From contig CACYCS010000021.1 of assembly GCA_902773005.1 (NCBI GenBank), forward strand, positions 1-33,969: a stretch of 33,969 bases of DNA. The letters run 5' to 3'. Position numbers and translations under genes: made by a program. Shown here in pieces: positions 2,197 through 8,532 of this stretch (positions are counted from its first letter, which is position 1; each line of letters begins with the position of its first letter). The stretch is from an uncultured Erysipelotrichaceae bacterium (GTDB lineage Bacteria > Bacillota_I > Bacilli_A > RFN20 > CAG-826). The notes beneath the pieces were generated by a model that saw nothing but the letters and a program-made list of their open reading frames with translations, ran no database searches and had not been told where the DNA came from.

Positions 2197-2649
2197 ATGC
2201 GCGCTTTGGTTCAAGTCGTCGATCGCGCCTCCGTTTCGATCGACGGAAATAAAATCTCTTCCATCGAGAAGGGGTTTTTGGTTTTCCTTGGCCTGACCGA
2301 GGGGGACGATGAAGCAACTGCGCGAAAGATGGCGGAGAAGATCATGAAGCTCCGCGTCTTCGAAGACGAAAACGGAAAGATCAATCTGTCGCTTGATTCC
2401 GTCGGCGGTGAGATATTGCTAGTGAGCCAATTCACTCTCTACGGCAACATGAAAGAAGGAAACCGGCCTTCATTCGTCGAGGCGCTTCGACCTGAAAAAG
2501 CGAAGCCCCTTTACGCCTATTTCGCCTCCGTTCTGCGCGAGAAATTCCCTTCCTTGCAAGAAGGGGTATTTGGCGCTGACATGAGGGTTGAATTGGTGAA
2601 TCATGGCCCGACTACCCTTTGGCTCGATTCGAAGGAGCTATTCAAATGA
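2197..2649 (+). CDS. dtd: D-aminoacyl-tRNA deacylase
   Basis: Removes D-amino acids mischarged on tRNA, a proofreading step in translation. Start ATG 2197 was chosen because MRALVQVVDRASV is the conserved Dtd N-terminus; an upstream in-frame ATG at 2134 lies inside pdp and would add unrelated residues. Length is 150 aa, standard for the family. The two active-site motifs are visible: SQFTLYG at about residues 78-84 and NHGPTTLWLD near the C-terminus, carrying the Gly-cisPro element. It follows pdp after 4 nt, and its TGA stop overlaps the mnmA ATG (ATGA, 2646-2649), so translation of the three genes is likely coupled. Confidence 0.95.
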   Translation: MRALVQVVDRASVSIDGNKISSIEKGFLVFLGLTEGDDEATARKMAEKIMKLRVFEDENGKINLSLDSVGGEILLVSQFTLYGNMKEGNRPSFVEALRPEKAKPLYAYFASVLREKFPSLQEGVFGADMRVELVNHGPTTLWLDSKELFK

Positions 2650-3770
2650 AAGTGCTCATTGGGCTTAGCGGCGGCGTCGATAGCGCGGTCGCGGCGTACT
2701 TGCTCAAGAAGCAGGGGTACGAAGTCGCGGGCGGGTTCATGCGGAATTGGGACGCGCTTGCCAATAACGATTACCTTGGCAATCCGACGATCGGAAATGC
2801 GCAGTGTCCGCAGGAAGTCGATTATCAAGACGCGGTCAAAGTCGCCGAGAAGCTAGGCATCCCCTTGCTTCGCAGCGACTTCGTGAAGGAATATTGGGAT
2901 AACGTGTTTTCCTATTTCCTTTCGGAATATAAGAAAGGCAGGACGCCGAATCCCGACGTTTTCTGCAACAAGTACATCAAGTTCGATTCGTTTCTAAAAT
3001 TCGCGTTGGACTCTGGCTTCGATTGCATCGCGATGGGGCATTACGCGAAGAGGGTAGATGACGAAAACGGCTTCTCTTGGCTATATAAAGCAAGCGACAA
3101 AAACAAGGACCAGTCGTACTTTTTGTCGCAGATAAGCGAGCAGCAGATTGCCTCTTGCCTCTTTCCTTTAGCCGACATCGATAAACCGGAAGTGAGGCGC
3201 ATCGCGCATGAGCTTGATCTCGAATCGGTGATGGACAAAAAGGACTCGACGGGTGTTTGCTTCATCGGGGAAAGGAACTTCAGGCAGTTCTTGCAGAACT
3301 ATATCCCAGCAAAGCCGGGCGACATCGTCGATGGGCCAACTGGAAAAGTCATCGGACGCCACCACGGGGTGATGTATTACACCCTCGGCCAGCACAAAGG
3401 GCTTGGGATTGGCGGGGTGAAAGACGCGCCAGAAGGAGCTTATTTCGTCTACGATAAAGACGTGACGAAGAACGTGCTTTATGTCGCGCAGATGAGCCAC
3501 CGCGAATTGCTCCAAAGCGATTCTTGCCTTGTCGATAACGTGAATTTCATCGGTCCTAAGCCAACTTCGCCCATCAAAGTCGGTGTGAAATTCCGTTACC
3601 GCCAGCCAGATCAAATGTGCATGCTGCAATTTGAAGGTGACAAGGTGAGACTCCATTATCTTTCTCCCGTCGAAGCTGTTGCCCCAGGTCAAATCGCTGT
3701 CTTCTATGATGGCGAGAAGATGCTAGGCGGTGGGATCATCGATAGCATCCACCATGTGAAGTCGCTATAG
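2646..3770 (+). CDS. mnmA: tRNA-specific 2-thiouridylase
   Basis: Thiolates U34 of tRNA-Lys, -Glu and -Gln using ATP and persulfide sulfur relayed from a cysteine desulfurase. ATG 2646 overlaps the dtd stop and gives the canonical start MKVLIGLSGGVDSAV with the PP-loop SGGVDS at residues 8-13. Length is 374 aa, close to the family norm. The catalytic pair is visible: Cys in PNPDVFCNKYIKF (about residue 108) and Cys in STGVCFIGERNF (about 204). NKDQSYFLS and the C-terminal beta-barrel segments are also present. It is the last gene of the pdp-dtd-mnmA operon; a hairpin-T-tract terminator follows at 3796-3826. In many Firmicutes mnmA lies near alaS, and here the AlbA-type cassette separates the two. 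Confidence 0.96.
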   Translation: MKVLIGLSGGVDSAVAAYLLKKQGYEVAGGFMRNWDALANNDYLGNPTIGNAQCPQEVDYQDAVKVAEKLGIPLLRSDFVKEYWDNVFSYFLSEYKKGRTPNPDVFCNKYIKFDSFLKFALDSGFDCIAMGHYAKRVDDENGFSWLYKASDKNKDQSYFLSQISEQQIASCLFPLADIDKPEVRRIAHELDLESVMDKKDSTGVCFIGERNFRQFLQNYIPAKPGDIVDGPTGKVIGRHHGVMYYTLGQHKGLGIGGVKDAPEGAYFVYDKDVTKNVLYVAQMSHRELLQSDSCLVDNVNFIGPKPTSPIKVGVKFRYRQPDQMCMLQFEGDKVRLHYLSPVEAVAPGQIAVFYDGEKMLGGGIIDSIHHVKSL

Positions 3771-3771
3771 G

Positions 3772-3852
3772 AATACGCTTATTCATATTCGTTGGATCCG
3801 CGGCCTAAACGGTTCGCGGATTTTATCGTCCAATGCCTTGGAAAAGCGTATT
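3772..3852 (+). other. Candidate multi-hairpin structured element downstream of mnmA
   Basis: AATACGCTT (3772-3780) and AAGCGTATT (3844-3852) are perfect inverted repeats of 9 bp. Between them lie two separate perfect hairpins: ATCCGCG/CGCGGAT (3796-3802 with 3815-3821) and TCCAA/TTGGA (3829-3833 with 3838-3842, loop TGCC). Together they can fold as a closed three-helix junction. The first internal hairpin plus TTTTA is by itself a plausible terminator, so the larger fold is a hypothesis. Confidence 0.4.
3796..3826 (+). terminator. Intrinsic terminator of the pdp-dtd-mnmA operon
   Basis: A 7-bp perfect stem ATCCGCG/CGCGGAT with a 12-nt loop is followed directly by TTTTA (3822 onward when the last stem T is set aside). 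It lies 26 nt after the mnmA stop codon. Confidence 0.65.
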
Positions 3853-3963
3853 TTCATTTGCGCCTTATTGCGTTTTCGAATAACAGAAAAATCAAAGTTG
3901 GCTGTTCATCGAAACTTTTCTATTTGCGCTCTATTTGCGCTCTATTGCGCTCTATTTGCGCTA
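3852..3963 (+). repeat. Left copy of a 112-bp direct repeat flanking the AlbA_2/HATPase gene
   Basis: This copy matches 5442-5553 base for base in length with 5 mismatches that I count by eye (about 95% identity), same orientation. It begins TTTCATTTGCGCC, contains a unique middle (CAGAAAAATCAAAGTTGGCT and beyond) and ends in four head-to-tail copies of TATTTGCGCTC. Only this left copy continues into TATAAT, so it supplies the promoter of the gene. Confidence 0.9.
3921..3963 (+). repeat. Iteron-like array TATTTGCGCTC x4 abutting the promoter
   Basis: Units at 3921-3931, 3932-3942, 3943-3952 (one T short) and 3953-3963. The 11-bp period places each unit on nearly the same helix face. The last unit overlaps the first two bases of the -10 box TATAAT (3962-3967). 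Two related units, CATTTGCGCCT and TATTGCG, sit at the left end of the same repeat (3856-3873). This is the arrangement expected of an operator for a regulator that binds cooperatively. Confidence 0.75.
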
Positions 3964-3967
3964 TAAT
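3962..3967 (+). promoter_or_regulatory. -10 box of the AlbA_2/HATPase gene
   Basis: Perfect TATAAT overlapping the last iteron unit. No convincing -35 hexamer is visible at 16-18 bp because that region is the iteron array. The Shine-Dalgarno AAAGGAGG (3977-3984) and the ATG at 3993 follow. Confidence 0.6.
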
Positions 3968-3992
3968 ATCCTTGGTAAAGGAGGAAGCGAGC

Positions 3993-5441
3993 ATGGATAA
4001 CGCGACCGTAGAGATACTCGTGAGAGGTTTATTGGCCTTAGGGAAGGAAAACGATTACGTCGAATTCAAAATGAACGATGCTAATCCCATTGACCTAGGC
4101 GAAAGAATCTGTGGGCTTTCGAATGCCGCCGCGCTTGCCGGCAAGCCTTTTGGCTATCTCGTATGGGGCGTTGAAGACTCGACGAGGACGATCGTGGGGA
4201 CGGATCTTTCTTTCAAAAATTGGAAGAAAGGCGGCGAGGACATTGTTCCGTATTGGCGCATCAGCTTGGTCCCTCATATAGAACTTTTCGATTACGAATT
4301 GGAAATCGACTCGAAGCGAGTTCTGGTCCTTGAAATATCCGCAGCGTCGTATTCGCCAACGCAGTTTCGCAACATCGCCTATTGCAGGGTCGATAGTTAC
4401 ACGAAGCCATTGCGCGATTTTCCCACAAGCGAAAAGCGACTTTTCGATATTCTGAACGAACGTACGGCCGAGAAACGAATCTGCTATCGCGGGGCGAACA
4501 AGGAAGATTTGCGCCTCCTATTGAATTTCGAGGCATATTTTGAGCATCTAGGCCGTATCATGCCATCGAATGAGGATGAAGCCATCCGTTGTTTTGTTCA
4601 GGAAGGCTTCCTCGTCGAGAATCGCCTCGATTCCTATGACATCACCAATCTTGGCGCTTTGCTCTACGCAAACAGCCTAAGCAAATTCCAATCTTTGCAA
4701 GAAAAGGCCATCCGCATCGTGTTTTATGATGGGAATGACCGTCTTCAGACGAAAGGAAGAGAATCCTTCGACGAAGGCTATGCGATATGCTTTGACAAAG
4801 CGATTCGCGCCCTTTTGCCGCGAATCGCCAATCCAGACATATTCGTTAACGGGATTCGCAAGGACTCCTATTCGATTCCGGTCATCGCTTTGCGCGAAGC
4901 ACTTGCCAACGCCACGATGCACCAGGATCTATTGAGCGGATATGGGCCGTTGATCGAAGTGTTCGATAACCGCGTGGAGTGGAGCAACCCAGGGTCGCTC
5001 CATGTGGCTATCGATCGAATCATCGATACGGTACCGCTTCCCGAAAACCCGCAGCTCGCCATGTTCTTAAGACGGATAAACGTCGGCGATGCTTCGGGCA
5101 GCGGCGTCGACAAAATCTGCCTTTCGCTCGAAAAGGAAAAGATGGCTCCTCCGATATTCGAATCAACGCCGACCGGCACAAGGGTCGTGATATTCCGAAA
5201 CAAGCGATTCGCCGATATGGATGCGGAAGAAAAATTGCTCGCAACCTACGATCATGCCGTTTTGAAGCATCTGGATCGCGAATACATGACCAACGCGAGC
5301 CTTCGGGAACGATTTGGGCTAAACGAAAATTCCGTTTATGTCATTGCGAGATTGCTTTCGAACGCTTTGGAACGCGGCTTGATAAAAAAACGTGAAGGAA
5401 GCACGAAAAAAGACACCTCCTACATGCCATATTGGGCTTGA
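3993..5441 (+). CDS. AlbA_2 (Schlafen-type) DNA/RNA-binding protein with HATPase_c_4-like domain and C-terminal winged helix
   Basis: 482 aa. ATG 3993 is chosen because AAAGGAGG lies 8 nt upstream; the frame stays open upstream only through the flanking repeat. The N-terminal ~130 residues have the AlbA_2/Schlafen pattern (DYVEFK at 21-26, GYLVWGVED at 54-62). Residues ~295-400 carry the GHKL-like ATP-binding signature of this family: ALREALANATMHQD, then EVFDNRVEWSNPG and GSGVDK. The last ~70 residues look like a winged helix (TNASLRERFGLNENSVYVIARLLSNALERGLIKK). Homologues are widespread, often annotated 'ATP-binding protein' or 'putative transcriptional regulator', without an agreed role; some related proteins occur in defence islands. 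It is a single-gene unit with its own promoter, and the right-hand 112-bp repeat begins at the very base after the stop codon. A role as a regulator acting on its own repeats, or a mobile/defence cassette, is inference. Confidence 0.8.
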   Translation: MDNATVEILVRGLLALGKENDYVEFKMNDANPIDLGERICGLSNAAALAGKPFGYLVWGVEDSTRTIVGTDLSFKNWKKGGEDIVPYWRISLVPHIELFDYELEIDSKRVLVLEISAASYSPTQFRNIAYCRVDSYTKPLRDFPTSEKRLFDILNERTAEKRICYRGANKEDLRLLLNFEAYFEHLGRIMPSNEDEAIRCFVQEGFLVENRLDSYDITNLGALLYANSLSKFQSLQEKAIRIVFYDGNDRLQTKGRESFDEGYAICFDKAIRALLPRIANPDIFVNGIRKDSYSIPVIALREALANATMHQDLLSGYGPLIEVFDNRVEWSNPGSLHVAIDRIIDTVPLPENPQLAMFLRRINVGDASGSGVDKICLSLEKEKMAPPIFESTPTGTRVVIFRNKRFADMDAEEKLLATYDHAVLKHLDREYMTNASLRERFGLNENSVYVIARLLSNALERGLIKKREGSTKKDTSYMPYWA

Positions 5442-5553
5442 TTTCATTTGCGCCTTATTGCGTTTTCAAATAGCAGAAAAATCAAAGTTGGCTGTTCATC
5501 GAAACTTTTCTATTTGCGCTCTATTTGCGCCTTATTGCGCTTTATTTGCGCTA
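5442..5553 (+). repeat. Right copy of the 112-bp direct repeat
   Basis: It starts immediately after the TGA stop (5439-5441) of the AlbA_2 gene and aligns without gaps to 3852-3963. Iteron-like units are at 5511-5521, 5522-5532, 5533-5542 and 5543-5553. After the shared CTA the sequence is GTCG rather than TAAT, so this copy has no -10 box. Confidence 0.9.
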
Positions 5554-5741
5554 GTCGACTTTCTCAAAGCGAAACCGCCTTTTCCTTCCACGGCTAAATC
5601 AATAAGTTCGAAGTCGTTACGAGCCCTCAAATTTGCTTTGCCAAATGTCCTTTGAGCGCTTGAATCGAAAGTTTGAATGTCCCTTTCGGCTGTTGCTCAA
5701 GTCAAAGAAACGACAATATTCGAATTGCCCATTCCTCTTTT
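5554..5741. other. Intergenic stretch before the alaS T-box
   Basis: No gene is supported here. A weak possible promoter for the leader is TTGCTC (5693-5698) with AATATT (5715-5720) at 16 bp. I see no other structure. The short frames through this stretch have no ribosome-binding site and no family resemblance. Confidence 0.4.
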
Positions 5742-5911
5742 CACGCGCGTGCGGTATGATATCGCCGTATCGGGAACTTGCCACTCCCCCTTATGCGGGT
5801 AATGCCGCCGTGCCTAGCGTTAATAGGAACAATCGAGAGCACCCAGAACACGGTGAAGAAGGATGGTACCGCGCGAAACGCGTTCCTTCGAATAGGGGTG
5901 TTTTATTTTTT
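5742..5911 (+). promoter_or_regulatory. T-box riboswitch (alanyl-tRNA sensing) upstream of alaS
   Basis: The T-box core AAGAAGGATGGTACCGCG (5856-5873) fits the consensus AAnnnGGGUGGnACCGCG at all but one fixed base. The UGGU bulge would pair with the ACCA end of uncharged tRNA-Ala (discriminator A). The antiterminator is GAAGGA (5858-5863) with TCCTTC (5884-5889). The competing terminator is CGTTCCT (5881-5887) with AGGGGTG (5894-5900), including three G-U pairs, followed by TTTTATTTTTT (5901-5911). A stem I candidate pairs GCGGTAT (5751-5757) with ATGCCGC (5802-5808), closed by CACG/CGTG (5742-5745 with 5809-5812). GCC triplets at 5804-5806, 5807-5809 and 5812-5814 are possible alanine specifiers. 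CACC/GGTG (5840-5843 with 5852-5855) looks like stem III. The 5' boundary is uncertain. Confidence 0.85.
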
Positions 5912-5925
5912 GTGAGGTAATGACC

Positions 5926-8532
5926 ATGAAAAAACTATCAGGCAGCGAGATCCGCGCGATGTGGATCAAATTCTTCGAAAGCAAAGGCCATAAGTGGATG
6001 CCGGGCGTCAACTTGATCCCCCAAGGCGATAAGTCGCTTCTCTGGGTGAACGCCGGCGTCACTGGGCTTAAGAAATATTTCGATGGCAGCGAGATTCCTC
6101 CCTGCCGCAGGATCACTAACGTCCAGAAGTCGATCCGCACCAACGACATTGAAAACGTCGGCCATACGGCTAGGCACCATACTTTCTTCGAGATGCTTGG
6201 CAATTTCTCGATCGGCGACTATTTCCGCAAGGAAGTCATCGCCTTCGCGATCGAGATCTTGACCTCTCCCGAGTGGTTCGACATGCCGCTAGACAAACTC
6301 TATATGACCTACAATCCGGACGATCTCGAATCGTTCCGCTATTGGCAGGACCATGGCGTCGCGGCGGATCACCTCATCCCGCTAGAAGGCAACTATTGGC
6401 AGATCGGCGAAGGCCCCTGCGGCCCGAACACCGAAGTCTTCTTCGACCGCGGCGAGAAATATGACCCAGAAGGACTAGGGGTGAAGTTGCTCCAGGACGA
6501 TATCGAAAACGACCGCTACATCGAGATTTGGGGCATCGTGTTCTCGCAGTATAACGCCGTTAATGGCGTCGCGAGGAAAGACTACAAAGAGCTCCCATCC
6601 AAAAATATCGATACCGGTTCAGGCCTAGAGAGGCTTGCTTGCATCATGCAGGGCACCGAGACCAACTTCGAGACCGACCTCTTCATGCCGATCATCGAAG
6701 CGACCAAGAAGATCTGCGGCAAGCCCTATGAAGGCGAATATCTCATGAGCTACCGCGTGATCGCCGACCACGCGAGGTGCCTTACCTTCGCTTTGTCCGA
6801 TGGTGCCTATTTCTCGAATGAGGGCAGGGGATACGTCCTCCGCCGCATTATAAGAAGGGCGATGAGGTATGGACAGAAGCTAGGCATCAATGAGCCCTTC
6901 ATGCATAACCTCGTCCGCGTCGTCGCGGAACGCTATAGCGATTTCTATCCCGAACTCCTCGACAAAGTGGAGTTCGTCTCGAAGATGATCCTTGGCGAAG
7001 AAGAGAAGTTCATCCGCACCTTGTCTAGCGGCGAAGCGATGCTCCGCGAAATGCTTAACGGCAAGGAAAAGCTCGATGGTGCCGAGATCTTCAAACTCTA
7101 TGACACCTTCGGCTTCCCTAGCGACCTCACCAAGGAGATCTGCTTAGAAGCAGGTGTTACAGCCGATATGGAAGGGTTTGAGAGAGCGATGGAAGAGCAA
7201 AAGGAAAGGGCAAGGAACGCCAGAGGCGAGATCGAGTCCTTCCATAAGCAATCCAAAGATCTGCTCGCCTTCAAGGAAAAGAGCGAATTCACTTACGATC
7301 CCAAAGACATCAAGTCCAAAGTGATCGGCTGCTTCGTCGATGGGGTCAAAGTCGATTCCATCGAGGAGGAGGGCGAAATCTCCTTCGACGTCGATAATTT
7401 CTATGCCGAATCCGGCGGACAGGTTAGCGATGCGGGACGCGTCTATAATGGCTTTGCCGAAGGCGAGGTCATCGGAGTCTCCAAAGCCCCATCTGGTCAG
7501 CATTTGCTCCGCGTCCACATGAAGTATGGCGCGATCAAGACCGGCGATGAGCTCACCCTTGAAATCGATAAGAGGAAGAGGGAGTTGACCGCGAGGAACC
7601 ACTCCGCGACCCATTTGCTCCACGCGGCGATCGGAGAAGTGCTCGGACACCACGTCGACCAGAAGGGAAGCTATGTCGATGAGAATTATCTCCGCTTCGA
7701 CTATACCGCCCTCGCCAAGCCGACCGATGAGGAACTTCGCGCCATCGAAGAGCTCGTCAACGAGAAGATCGCCGAGGCGATTCCCGAAGTCACCGAGGTC
7801 CTGCCGATTGAACAGGCGAAGGAACTTGGCGCCGAAATGGAGTTCTCCGAAAAGTATGGAGACACCGTCCGCGTCGTGGAGTTCGGCGAGTTCTCGAAAG
7901 AGTTCTGCGGCGGCACCCACGTTGGAAACTCCTCCGACATCGGAGTGTTTGTGATCGAGTCGGAAGGAGCGGTCTCTAGCGGCGTTCGCCGCATCCAGGG
8001 CCGCACCTCATTAGGCGCCTATAAGCTTCTTGCCAACAAGAAGAGAATCCTCTCTGAACTCACTGAGGGACTCGGCAATCCTAGCGATGCGGAAGCCTCT
8101 TCTCGCTTAGCCACCTTACGCCGCGACCTTGATGCCAAAGGCAAGGAAGTCGATGCGCTTAAGTCGAAGCTAGCGACCCTTGAATCAAAGGGTCTGGATT
8201 CGGAGTTTGAAGTAGTGAACGAAATATACTTCATGCTGAAAGTTGTCGATGGTGGGCGCAACGAAGTCATGAAGCTTGGCGACAATTTGAAGACAAAGCA
8301 CCCCGATTACCTCATTGCCTTAATCGGCAAAGAAGGCGAGAAGAAGCCCTTCGTTGTCTTCGCTGGAGGCAAGGGCAAAGAAAAGCTCGCTGCCGGGAAC
8401 GCGATGAAGCTAGCGGCGCCGCTACTTGGCGGCAACGGAGGCGGCAAGCCCGAGATGGCTAGCGGCTCCGCCGTAAGCCTCGAAAAGCTTGAGGAAGTCC
8501 GCGCTGCATTAAAGAGCAAACTCGCGGAATAG
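5926..8532 (+). CDS. alaS: Alanyl-tRNA synthetase
   Basis: Charges tRNA-Ala and edits mischarged Ser/Gly in the cytoplasm. The start is ATG 5926 (MKKLSGSEIRAMW): GAGG at 5914-5917 is 8 nt from it but only 2 nt from the in-frame ATG at 5920, which would give two extra residues. About 868 aa, the full family length. The N-terminal class II aminoacylation domain is intact (WVNAGVTGLKKYF, RHHTFFEMLGNFSIGDYF, GSGLERLACIMQG). The editing domain has the zinc-binding HSATHLLH at about residue 558 and CGGTHVGN at about 660. The C-terminal oligomerisation/C-Ala region ends in a Gly-rich segment. Expression should be controlled by the T-box directly upstream. The DUF1292 gene follows after 12 nt. Confidence 0.97.
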   Translation: MKKLSGSEIRAMWIKFFESKGHKWMPGVNLIPQGDKSLLWVNAGVTGLKKYFDGSEIPPCRRITNVQKSIRTNDIENVGHTARHHTFFEMLGNFSIGDYFRKEVIAFAIEILTSPEWFDMPLDKLYMTYNPDDLESFRYWQDHGVAADHLIPLEGNYWQIGEGPCGPNTEVFFDRGEKYDPEGLGVKLLQDDIENDRYIEIWGIVFSQYNAVNGVARKDYKELPSKNIDTGSGLERLACIMQGTETNFETDLFMPIIEATKKICGKPYEGEYLMSYRVIADHARCLTFALSDGAYFSNEGRGYVLRRIIRRAMRYGQKLGINEPFMHNLVRVVAERYSDFYPELLDKVEFVSKMILGEEEKFIRTLSSGEAMLREMLNGKEKLDGAEIFKLYDTFGFPSDLTKEICLEAGVTADMEGFERAMEEQKERARNARGEIESFHKQSKDLLAFKEKSEFTYDPKDIKSKVIGCFVDGVKVDSIEEEGEISFDVDNFYAESGGQVSDAGRVYNGFAEGEVIGVSKAPSGQHLLRVHMKYGAIKTGDELTLEIDKRKRELTARNHSATHLLHAAIGEVLGHHVDQKGSYVDENYLRFDYTALAKPTDEELRAIEELVNEKIAEAIPEVTEVLPIEQAKELGAEMEFSEKYGDTVRVVEFGEFSKEFCGGTHVGNSSDIGVFVIESEGAVSSGVRRIQGRTSLGAYKLLANKKRILSELTEGLGNPSDAEASSRLATLRRDLDAKGKEVDALKSKLATLESKGLDSEFEVVNEIYFMLKVVDGGRNEVMKLGDNLKTKHPDYLIALIGKEGEKKPFVVFAGGKGKEKLAAGNAMKLAAPLLGGNGGGKPEMASGSAVSLEKLEEVRAALKSKLAE

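What the first reader, a model, noticed from the sequence alone, without database searches (positions are those of the whole stretch)
3852..5553. AlbA_2/HATPase gene packed between two 112-bp direct repeats: a self-contained cassette
The repeats at 3852-3963 and 5442-5553 align without gaps with 5 differences. The left copy carries the promoter, and the right copy begins at the base after the stop codon. The unit lies between mnmA and alaS, which are neighbours in many Firmicutes. There is no transposase, and the ends are not inverted. This could be a unit that moves or is lost by recombination between the repeats, or a gene with its own binding site on both sides. The protein family has no settled function and some relatives are linked to defence.
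Basis: partly seen in the sequence, partly recalled or inferred. Interest (0 to 1): 0.72.

Follow-up and report, generated by a model that had tools for sequence, protein, structure and literature searches.

The report
Schlafen-type gene bounded by private repeats
A bacterial relative of the antiviral Schlafen proteins sits between two near-identical copies of its own private control-like DNA array, and this repeat-gene-repeat package is found at unrelated places in other gut bacteria, so it looks like a self-contained travelling cassette that carries no known transposase.

Summary
In detail: 3852-3963 and 5442-5553 are 107/112 identical, ungapped, and occur nowhere else in the genome. The gene (3993-5441) encodes a Schlafen/AlbA_2 nuclease-fold domain, a GHKL ATPase domain and a winged helix. 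The repeat is built from 11-bp iterons: one lone unit, a spacer, then an array starting 65-66 bp after the lone unit.

This is not a one-off. In the genus, 20 of 61 full-length family members are flanked by their own, unrelated iteron repeats, against 3 of 215 control ORFs; all are direct. All eight complete members of the window protein's closest group have them.

Evidence that the unit moves: 7 relatives have mnmA next to alaS with no cassette. A 95%-identical unit lies at unrelated sites in two genomes, with homology ending at or near the repeats. One of those genomes also holds a gene-less site with a single repeat. Between diverged units the repeats stay 96-97% identical while fourfold sites are 40% identical, so both copies appear constrained.

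Best reading: a self-bounded, mobile, self-regulated Schlafen-type cassette. DNA binding, defence role and transfer machinery are inferred.

The parts
3852..3963 (+). left direct repeat (112 bp): lone iteron, spacer, iteron array
3855..3865 (+). lone iteron of the left repeat (unit containing ATTTGCGC, 3856-3863), 66 bp before the array
   Evidence: offsets 4 and 70; the same 65-66 bp spacing in L049, L050, L110, L111 and L387
3896..3914 (+). conserved spacer motif AGTTGGCTGTTCATCGAAA, left copy
3920..3963 (+). array of four roughly 11-bp iterons (TATTTGCGCTC type)
   Evidence: (period 11, 0/100 shuffles)
3962..3967 (+). -10-like hexamer TATAAT at the edge of the left repeat, absent from the right copy
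   Evidence: no consensus -35 found
3980..3984 (+). ribosome-binding-site-like GGAGG
   Evidence: sequence
3993..5441 (+). gene of 482 aa: Schlafen/AlbA_2 (residues 19-140), GHKL ATPase HATPase_c_4 (319-400), C-terminal winged helix (about 410-480)
   Evidence: Pfam; AlphaFold model pLDDT 90; PDB fold matches 3LMM, SLFN14, SLFN13, histidine-kinase catalytic cores
5442..5553 (+). right direct repeat, starts at the base after the stop codon
5486..5504 (+). conserved spacer motif, right copy
5510..5553 (+). right iteron array
2646..3770 (+). mnmA, left neighbour (context)
5721..5890 (+). T-box leader of alaS, right neighbour (context)
   Evidence: RF00230, 34.3 bits, E 3e-6, below the gathering score of 93
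5920..8532 (+). alaS, right neighbour (context)

Best explanation
The unit 3852-5553 is a self-bounded single-gene cassette. It encodes a bacterial Schlafen-type protein (nuclease-fold AlbA_2 domain, GHKL ATPase, winged helix) and carries a private array of 11-bp iterons at each end in direct orientation. The left array sits where an operator would, next to the -10-like element, and probably binds the protein's winged helix so that the gene controls its own level (inferred). The repeat-gene-repeat package is what is gained by genomes, at intergenic sites (shown by comparison). Recombination between the two repeats can remove the gene and leave one repeat (single-repeat site shown; process inferred). 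The protein's job is most likely anti-phage or abortive-infection RNase activity (inferred from the family). What inserts the unit at new sites is unknown; because the unit holds no recombinase, host recombination or an enzyme acting in trans is assumed.
For: Repeats and gene as described. 20 of 61 full-length genus members have flanking repeats built from the gene's own iterons, against 3/215 control ORFs, Fisher p 5e-12; 20:0 direct against inverted. Upstream periodicity of mostly 10-12 bp in 27/62 members against 9/227 controls. The window protein's group has repeats in 8/8 complete members, three of them outside the genus, with a lone iteron 65-66 bp from the array while the iteron sequence differs. 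No cassette at mnmA-alaS in 7 relatives; a solo iteron array after mnmA in G008. The unit in G021 (L105) and G031 (L174) is 95% identical over 1.67 kb with no flank homology. G031 also carries the same flanks around a single repeat without the gene. dN/dS 0.15, 0.10 and 0.04 in three close pairs. For L079/L084 the repeats are 96-97% identical while fourfold sites are 40% identical. Schlafen-kinase-wHTH fusions are linked to BREX in at least 1017 taxa (PMC12839542).
Against: 41 of 61 full-length members lack a detectable downstream repeat, and some of these also occur in near-identical copies at different sites (L069/L073/L076, L057/L062, L089/L098), so the repeats are not needed for every transfer. 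Only one recent pair (L105/L174) fixes the unit's ends; its left end lies about 47 bp outside the detected repeat. Outside the genus such repeats are rare (about 3 of 71 members). No binding, excision or insertion was observed, and no target duplication was established. All genomes are draft or metagenome assemblies, so repeats can be mis-assembled.
Confidence: 0.5

Rival explanations
1. Two-sided operator only: the protein bridges or covers arrays on both sides of its gene to control its own transcription. The repeats are kept for regulation, and ordinary horizontal transfer explains the scattered locations; homology seems to stop at the repeats because only they are under selection.
For: Both copies stay 96-97% identical between L079 and L084 although fourfold sites are saturated at 40% identity, so both seem functional; helically phased 65-66 bp spacing; the array borders the -10-like hexamer.
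Against: Looping would tolerate inverted copies, yet 20 of 20 are direct. In the recent pair L105/L174, with fourfold sites 91% identical, homology still stops at or near the repeats. A gene-less single-repeat site exists.
Confidence: 0.3
2. Relic of tandem duplication: array-gene-array-gene lost its second gene, leaving a passive array downstream.
For: Tandem family genes and gene-less tandem repeat units exist (L054/L095/L103 locus; L010 downstream units).
Against: On the tree the repeats need at least 11 changes, the right copy often starts within 10 bases of the stop codon, and it is conserved far beyond neutral sites.
Confidence: 0.07
3. Integrase-made element: the repeats are attachment-site arms of a tyrosine-recombinase element that has lost its integrase or is moved in trans.
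For: An integrase ORF lies beside the single-repeat site in G031; homologues ride next to the integrase on streptococcal satellite phages.
Against: No integrase in the unit or between mnmA and alaS; repeats of 40-112 bp differ completely between units, unlike a shared core; the satellite-phage homologue has no flanking repeat.
Confidence: 0.08
4. Captured replication or partition module: iterons plus an iteron-binding protein, once a plasmid origin or centromere.
For: Iterons with helical periodicity beside a winged-helix protein.
Against: The protein is Schlafen/GHKL, not a known replication or partition protein; no plasmid hit by blastn.
Confidence: 0.04

Closest known systems
Bacterial Schlafen RNase - minimal histidine kinase - wHTH proteins (PF04326 + PF13749), linked to BREX and to phage defence (PMC12839542, which cites a 2025 preprint on bacterial Schlafens)
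   Same: Same domain order; conserved E-x4-E-x-K motif (E19, E24, K26) and E302/N306 of the GHKL fold; structural match to SLFN13/14 and 3LMM
   Different: Here it is a solitary gene between housekeeping genes, with private iteron arrays at both ends; no BREX genes were recognised among the ORFs listed for the first 12 kb of the window
Integron gene cassettes
   Same: Compact single-gene units that move as one piece
   Different: No integrase, no shared recombination site; each unit has its own repeat sequence and its own upstream control region
LTR elements and solo LTRs (analogy only)
   Same: Near-identical direct end repeats, more alike within than between units; gene-less solo repeats
   Different: No reverse transcriptase or integrase; repeats are iteron arrays
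Iteron-controlled replication/partition loci of plasmids (analogy, from general knowledge)
   Same: Helically phased short direct repeats next to the gene of the presumed binding protein
   Different: Chromosomal, duplicated at both ends, unrelated protein

Membership tests
Bacterial Schlafen-HATPase-wHTH protein | Schlafen/AlbA_2 domain with conserved acidic motif | tested here: met
   PF04326 E 6e-12; E19, E24, K26 conserved in at least 90% of 43 homologues; SLFN folds
Bacterial Schlafen-HATPase-wHTH protein | GHKL/histidine-kinase-like ATPase | tested here: met
   PF13749 E 9e-13; E302, N306, G334 and G371 invariant
Bacterial Schlafen-HATPase-wHTH protein | C-terminal winged helix | tested here: met
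   model helices 411-460 then two strands, winged-helix PDB matches; Pfam wHTH hits below cut-off
Bacterial Schlafen-HATPase-wHTH protein | RNase and anti-phage activity | not testable with these tools
   only reported for relatives in the literature
Transposon / insertion sequence | transposase gene in the unit | tested here: not met
   only one gene in the unit, not a transposase
Transposon / insertion sequence | terminal inverted repeats | tested here: not met
   ends are direct repeats
Transposon / insertion sequence | target-site duplication | tested here: inconclusive
   relatives too diverged for an exact pre-insertion site at the window
Integrase-driven element | integrase gene in the unit | tested here: not met
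   an integrase is near the single-repeat site only in G031
Integron cassette | shared recombination site across cassettes | tested here: not met
   each unit's repeats differ

The most novel reading that the evidence does not exclude
A new class of single-gene mobile element in which a Schlafen-type ATPase-nuclease uses its own private iteron arrays as the ends of its own cassette, moving or maintaining it without a transposase, while the same arrays regulate its expression.
Probability: 0.12. Interest if true: 0.9.

Novelty: new variant of a known kind. Interest (0 to 1): 0.64.

Why it matters
Bacterial Schlafen proteins are only now being linked to phage defence, and how such solitary genes spread and keep themselves silent is open. 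Here each gene carries its own address (iterons whose sequence differs from gene to gene but whose spacing is conserved) at both ends. This gives a direct, testable handle on how the protein is controlled and how the cassette travels. It also suggests a simple signature for finding further self-bounded defence cassettes outside defence islands.

Tried and rejected
A single-protein scan of genome contigs and of IMG/VR found no relative of the window protein; distant blastn of plasmids found nothing. A profile of 26 diverse members was too diverse to scan, so a narrower one was used. The window's 28-bp spacer motif turned up at other intergenic places and beside iteron-bearing ATPase genes; it is enriched over its reversed control but no function was settled. 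Flanking-repeat scores from L055, L081 and L090 were excluded because their repeats lie far from the gene or are not iterons. Phage and satellite-phage homologues have no flanking repeats. The DUF4143 and DUF234 families were tested as possible parallel cases: 3/25 and 2/27 with repeats, not the same pattern. Empty sites for G023/G029 units were sought in 800 kb of G030; the loci hold other family genes or larger inserts instead. NCBIfam gave no hit, and the PADLOC hit (E 3e-5) was partial and weak.

Full report
Observation. The two repeats were found independently: 3852-3963 and 5442-5553, 107/112 identical, no gaps. They are the only two matches in the 2.3-Mb draft genome. The gene 3993-5441 starts 30 bases after the left repeat, and the right repeat starts at the first base after the stop. 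TATAAT lies at 3962-3967, straddling the end of the left repeat; the right copy has TAGTCG there. So the repeated piece looks like an operator array without the core promoter.

The protein. Pfam gives Schlafen AlbA_2 and HATPase_c_4. The AlphaFold model (mean pLDDT 90) matches the uncharacterised protein 3LMM over its length, Schlafens 13/14 for the first domain, histidine-kinase catalytic cores, and winged helices. E19, E24, K26 and the GHKL residues E302, N306 and G334 are conserved. This is the Schlafen - minimal histidine kinase - wHTH architecture reported beside BREX systems in at least 1017 taxa (PMC12839542).

The repeat has an inner plan. In the window's group each repeat has one lone iteron, a spacer with a conserved ATCG-centred motif, then an array of roughly 11-bp iterons. 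The distance from lone iteron to array is 66, 66, 65, 66, 66 and 65 bp in WIN, L050, L110, L111, L049 and L387, although the iteron sequence differs (ATTTGCGC, TTGATGG, TATTTTCC, TTCTTGAT and others). 66 bp is six turns of 11 bp. This is geometry one would expect for a protein assembling on one face of DNA (inference).

It is a family-wide habit, not a single accident. About 70 relatives were collected in 31 genomes of the genus. 20 of 61 full-length members have flanking direct repeats close to the gene, against 3 of 215 control ORFs. Each pair has its own sequence. None is inverted. In an 800-kb stretch of G030, 1 of 708 ORFs has a nearby flanking repeat of comparable score, and it is a family gene. 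Upstream periodicity, mostly 10-12 bp, marks 27 of 62 members against 9 of 227 controls. On a maximum-likelihood tree the repeat state needs at least 11 changes on well-supported branches. The group of the window protein has repeats in all eight complete members: five in the genus and three outside it (L386, L387, L388). L386's repeat is shorter (43 bp) than the others.

Movement. In seven relatives mnmA lies directly before the alaS T-box with nothing between, so the window cassette is an addition here. G008 has only an iteron array after mnmA, and no family gene was detected in that 61%-complete genome. L105 (G021) and L174 (G031) share 1.67 kb at 95% identity, running from -132 to +85 of the gene, and nothing beyond; whole-genome searches in both directions found no flank homology at the unit, and no flanking ORFs are shared. 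G031 also has a second site where the same left flank (271 bp, 96%, including the repeat) and the same right flank (134 bp, 91%) meet in a single repeat without the gene. This is what recombination between the repeats would leave, or what a site looks like before a circle integrates. The occupied site lies in a region with an ABC-3C system, a KAP NTPase, an integrase and another Schlafen-type gene.

Constraint. For L079/L084 the coding DNA is 73% identical and fourfold sites 40% identical, while the upstream and downstream repeats are 96-97% identical. For L049/L111 fourfold sites are 31% identical and the repeats 73-79%. Both copies therefore appear to be kept by selection, not merely left over. 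At such distances neutral flanks would decay anyway, so these pairs do not by themselves fix the ends of the moving unit; only L105/L174 does, and there the left end is about 47 bp outside the detected repeat. Close pairs show dN/dS of 0.15, 0.10 and 0.04, so the protein is functional.

Limits. 41 of 61 full-length members lack a downstream repeat. Some of these also move, and a subset is bordered by another motif, CCCGCATCGCGCTCCA. Three family hits with distant, non-iteron repeats were excluded by hand, whereas controls were not filtered that way. Outside the genus repeats are rare and are absent from 22 viral-contig and phage homologues. All genomes are draft or metagenome assemblies. Nothing here shows binding, excision, or an enzyme that inserts the unit.

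Verdict. I favour a self-bounded, self-regulated, horizontally mobile Schlafen-type cassette (0.5), with a purely regulatory two-sided operator as the main rival (0.3).

Noticed in passing
L334-L361 (DUF234 loci in the genus): 19 of 27 DUF234 ATPase-wHTH genes carry upstream iterons, 18 of them with a period of exactly 15 bp (for example GATTTAGTAAATTAT repeated), mostly without a downstream copy; a different single-gene family with its own spacing.
   Followed up: partly
L069 1919 and 3676; L092 1993 and 3665; L073, L076, L082, L098, L115, L306: Motif CCCGCATCGCGCTCCA followed by a hairpin-like stretch borders several non-repeat family genes; about 15 copies against 1 for the reversed control in 1.48 Mb. 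Possible second cassette boundary.
   Followed up: partly
window 3896-3914 and 5486-5504; L152, L153, L154, L155, L156, L157, L387: Motif AGTYGGCTRTTCATCGAAA recurs between genes elsewhere, including upstream of a dnaA-like gene in G023 and beside an iteron-bearing DUF234 gene in G000; 12 hits against 1 for the reversed control.
   Followed up: partly
L152, L153, L156 (G027): A shared upstream stretch ending CCAATTAAATAAGTGAGGAGG precedes three genes, one peptidase C39-like; possibly a competence-type promoter.
   Followed up: no
L080 (G023) and L088 (G030): Same locus, flanks about 92% identical, but the family gene keeps only its first 410 bp at 89% while the rest has diverged: apparent domain swap.
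   Followed up: partly
L010 2786-3099 (G000): Tandem units of about 107-118 bp with 11-bp GAGTCGCCAAG iterons without a gene of their own; resemble gene-less repeats.
   Followed up: partly
L384 (Streptococcus satellite phage Javan309): Full-length homologue at 33% identity sits beside the integrase gene of a phage satellite, without flanking repeats.
   Followed up: partly
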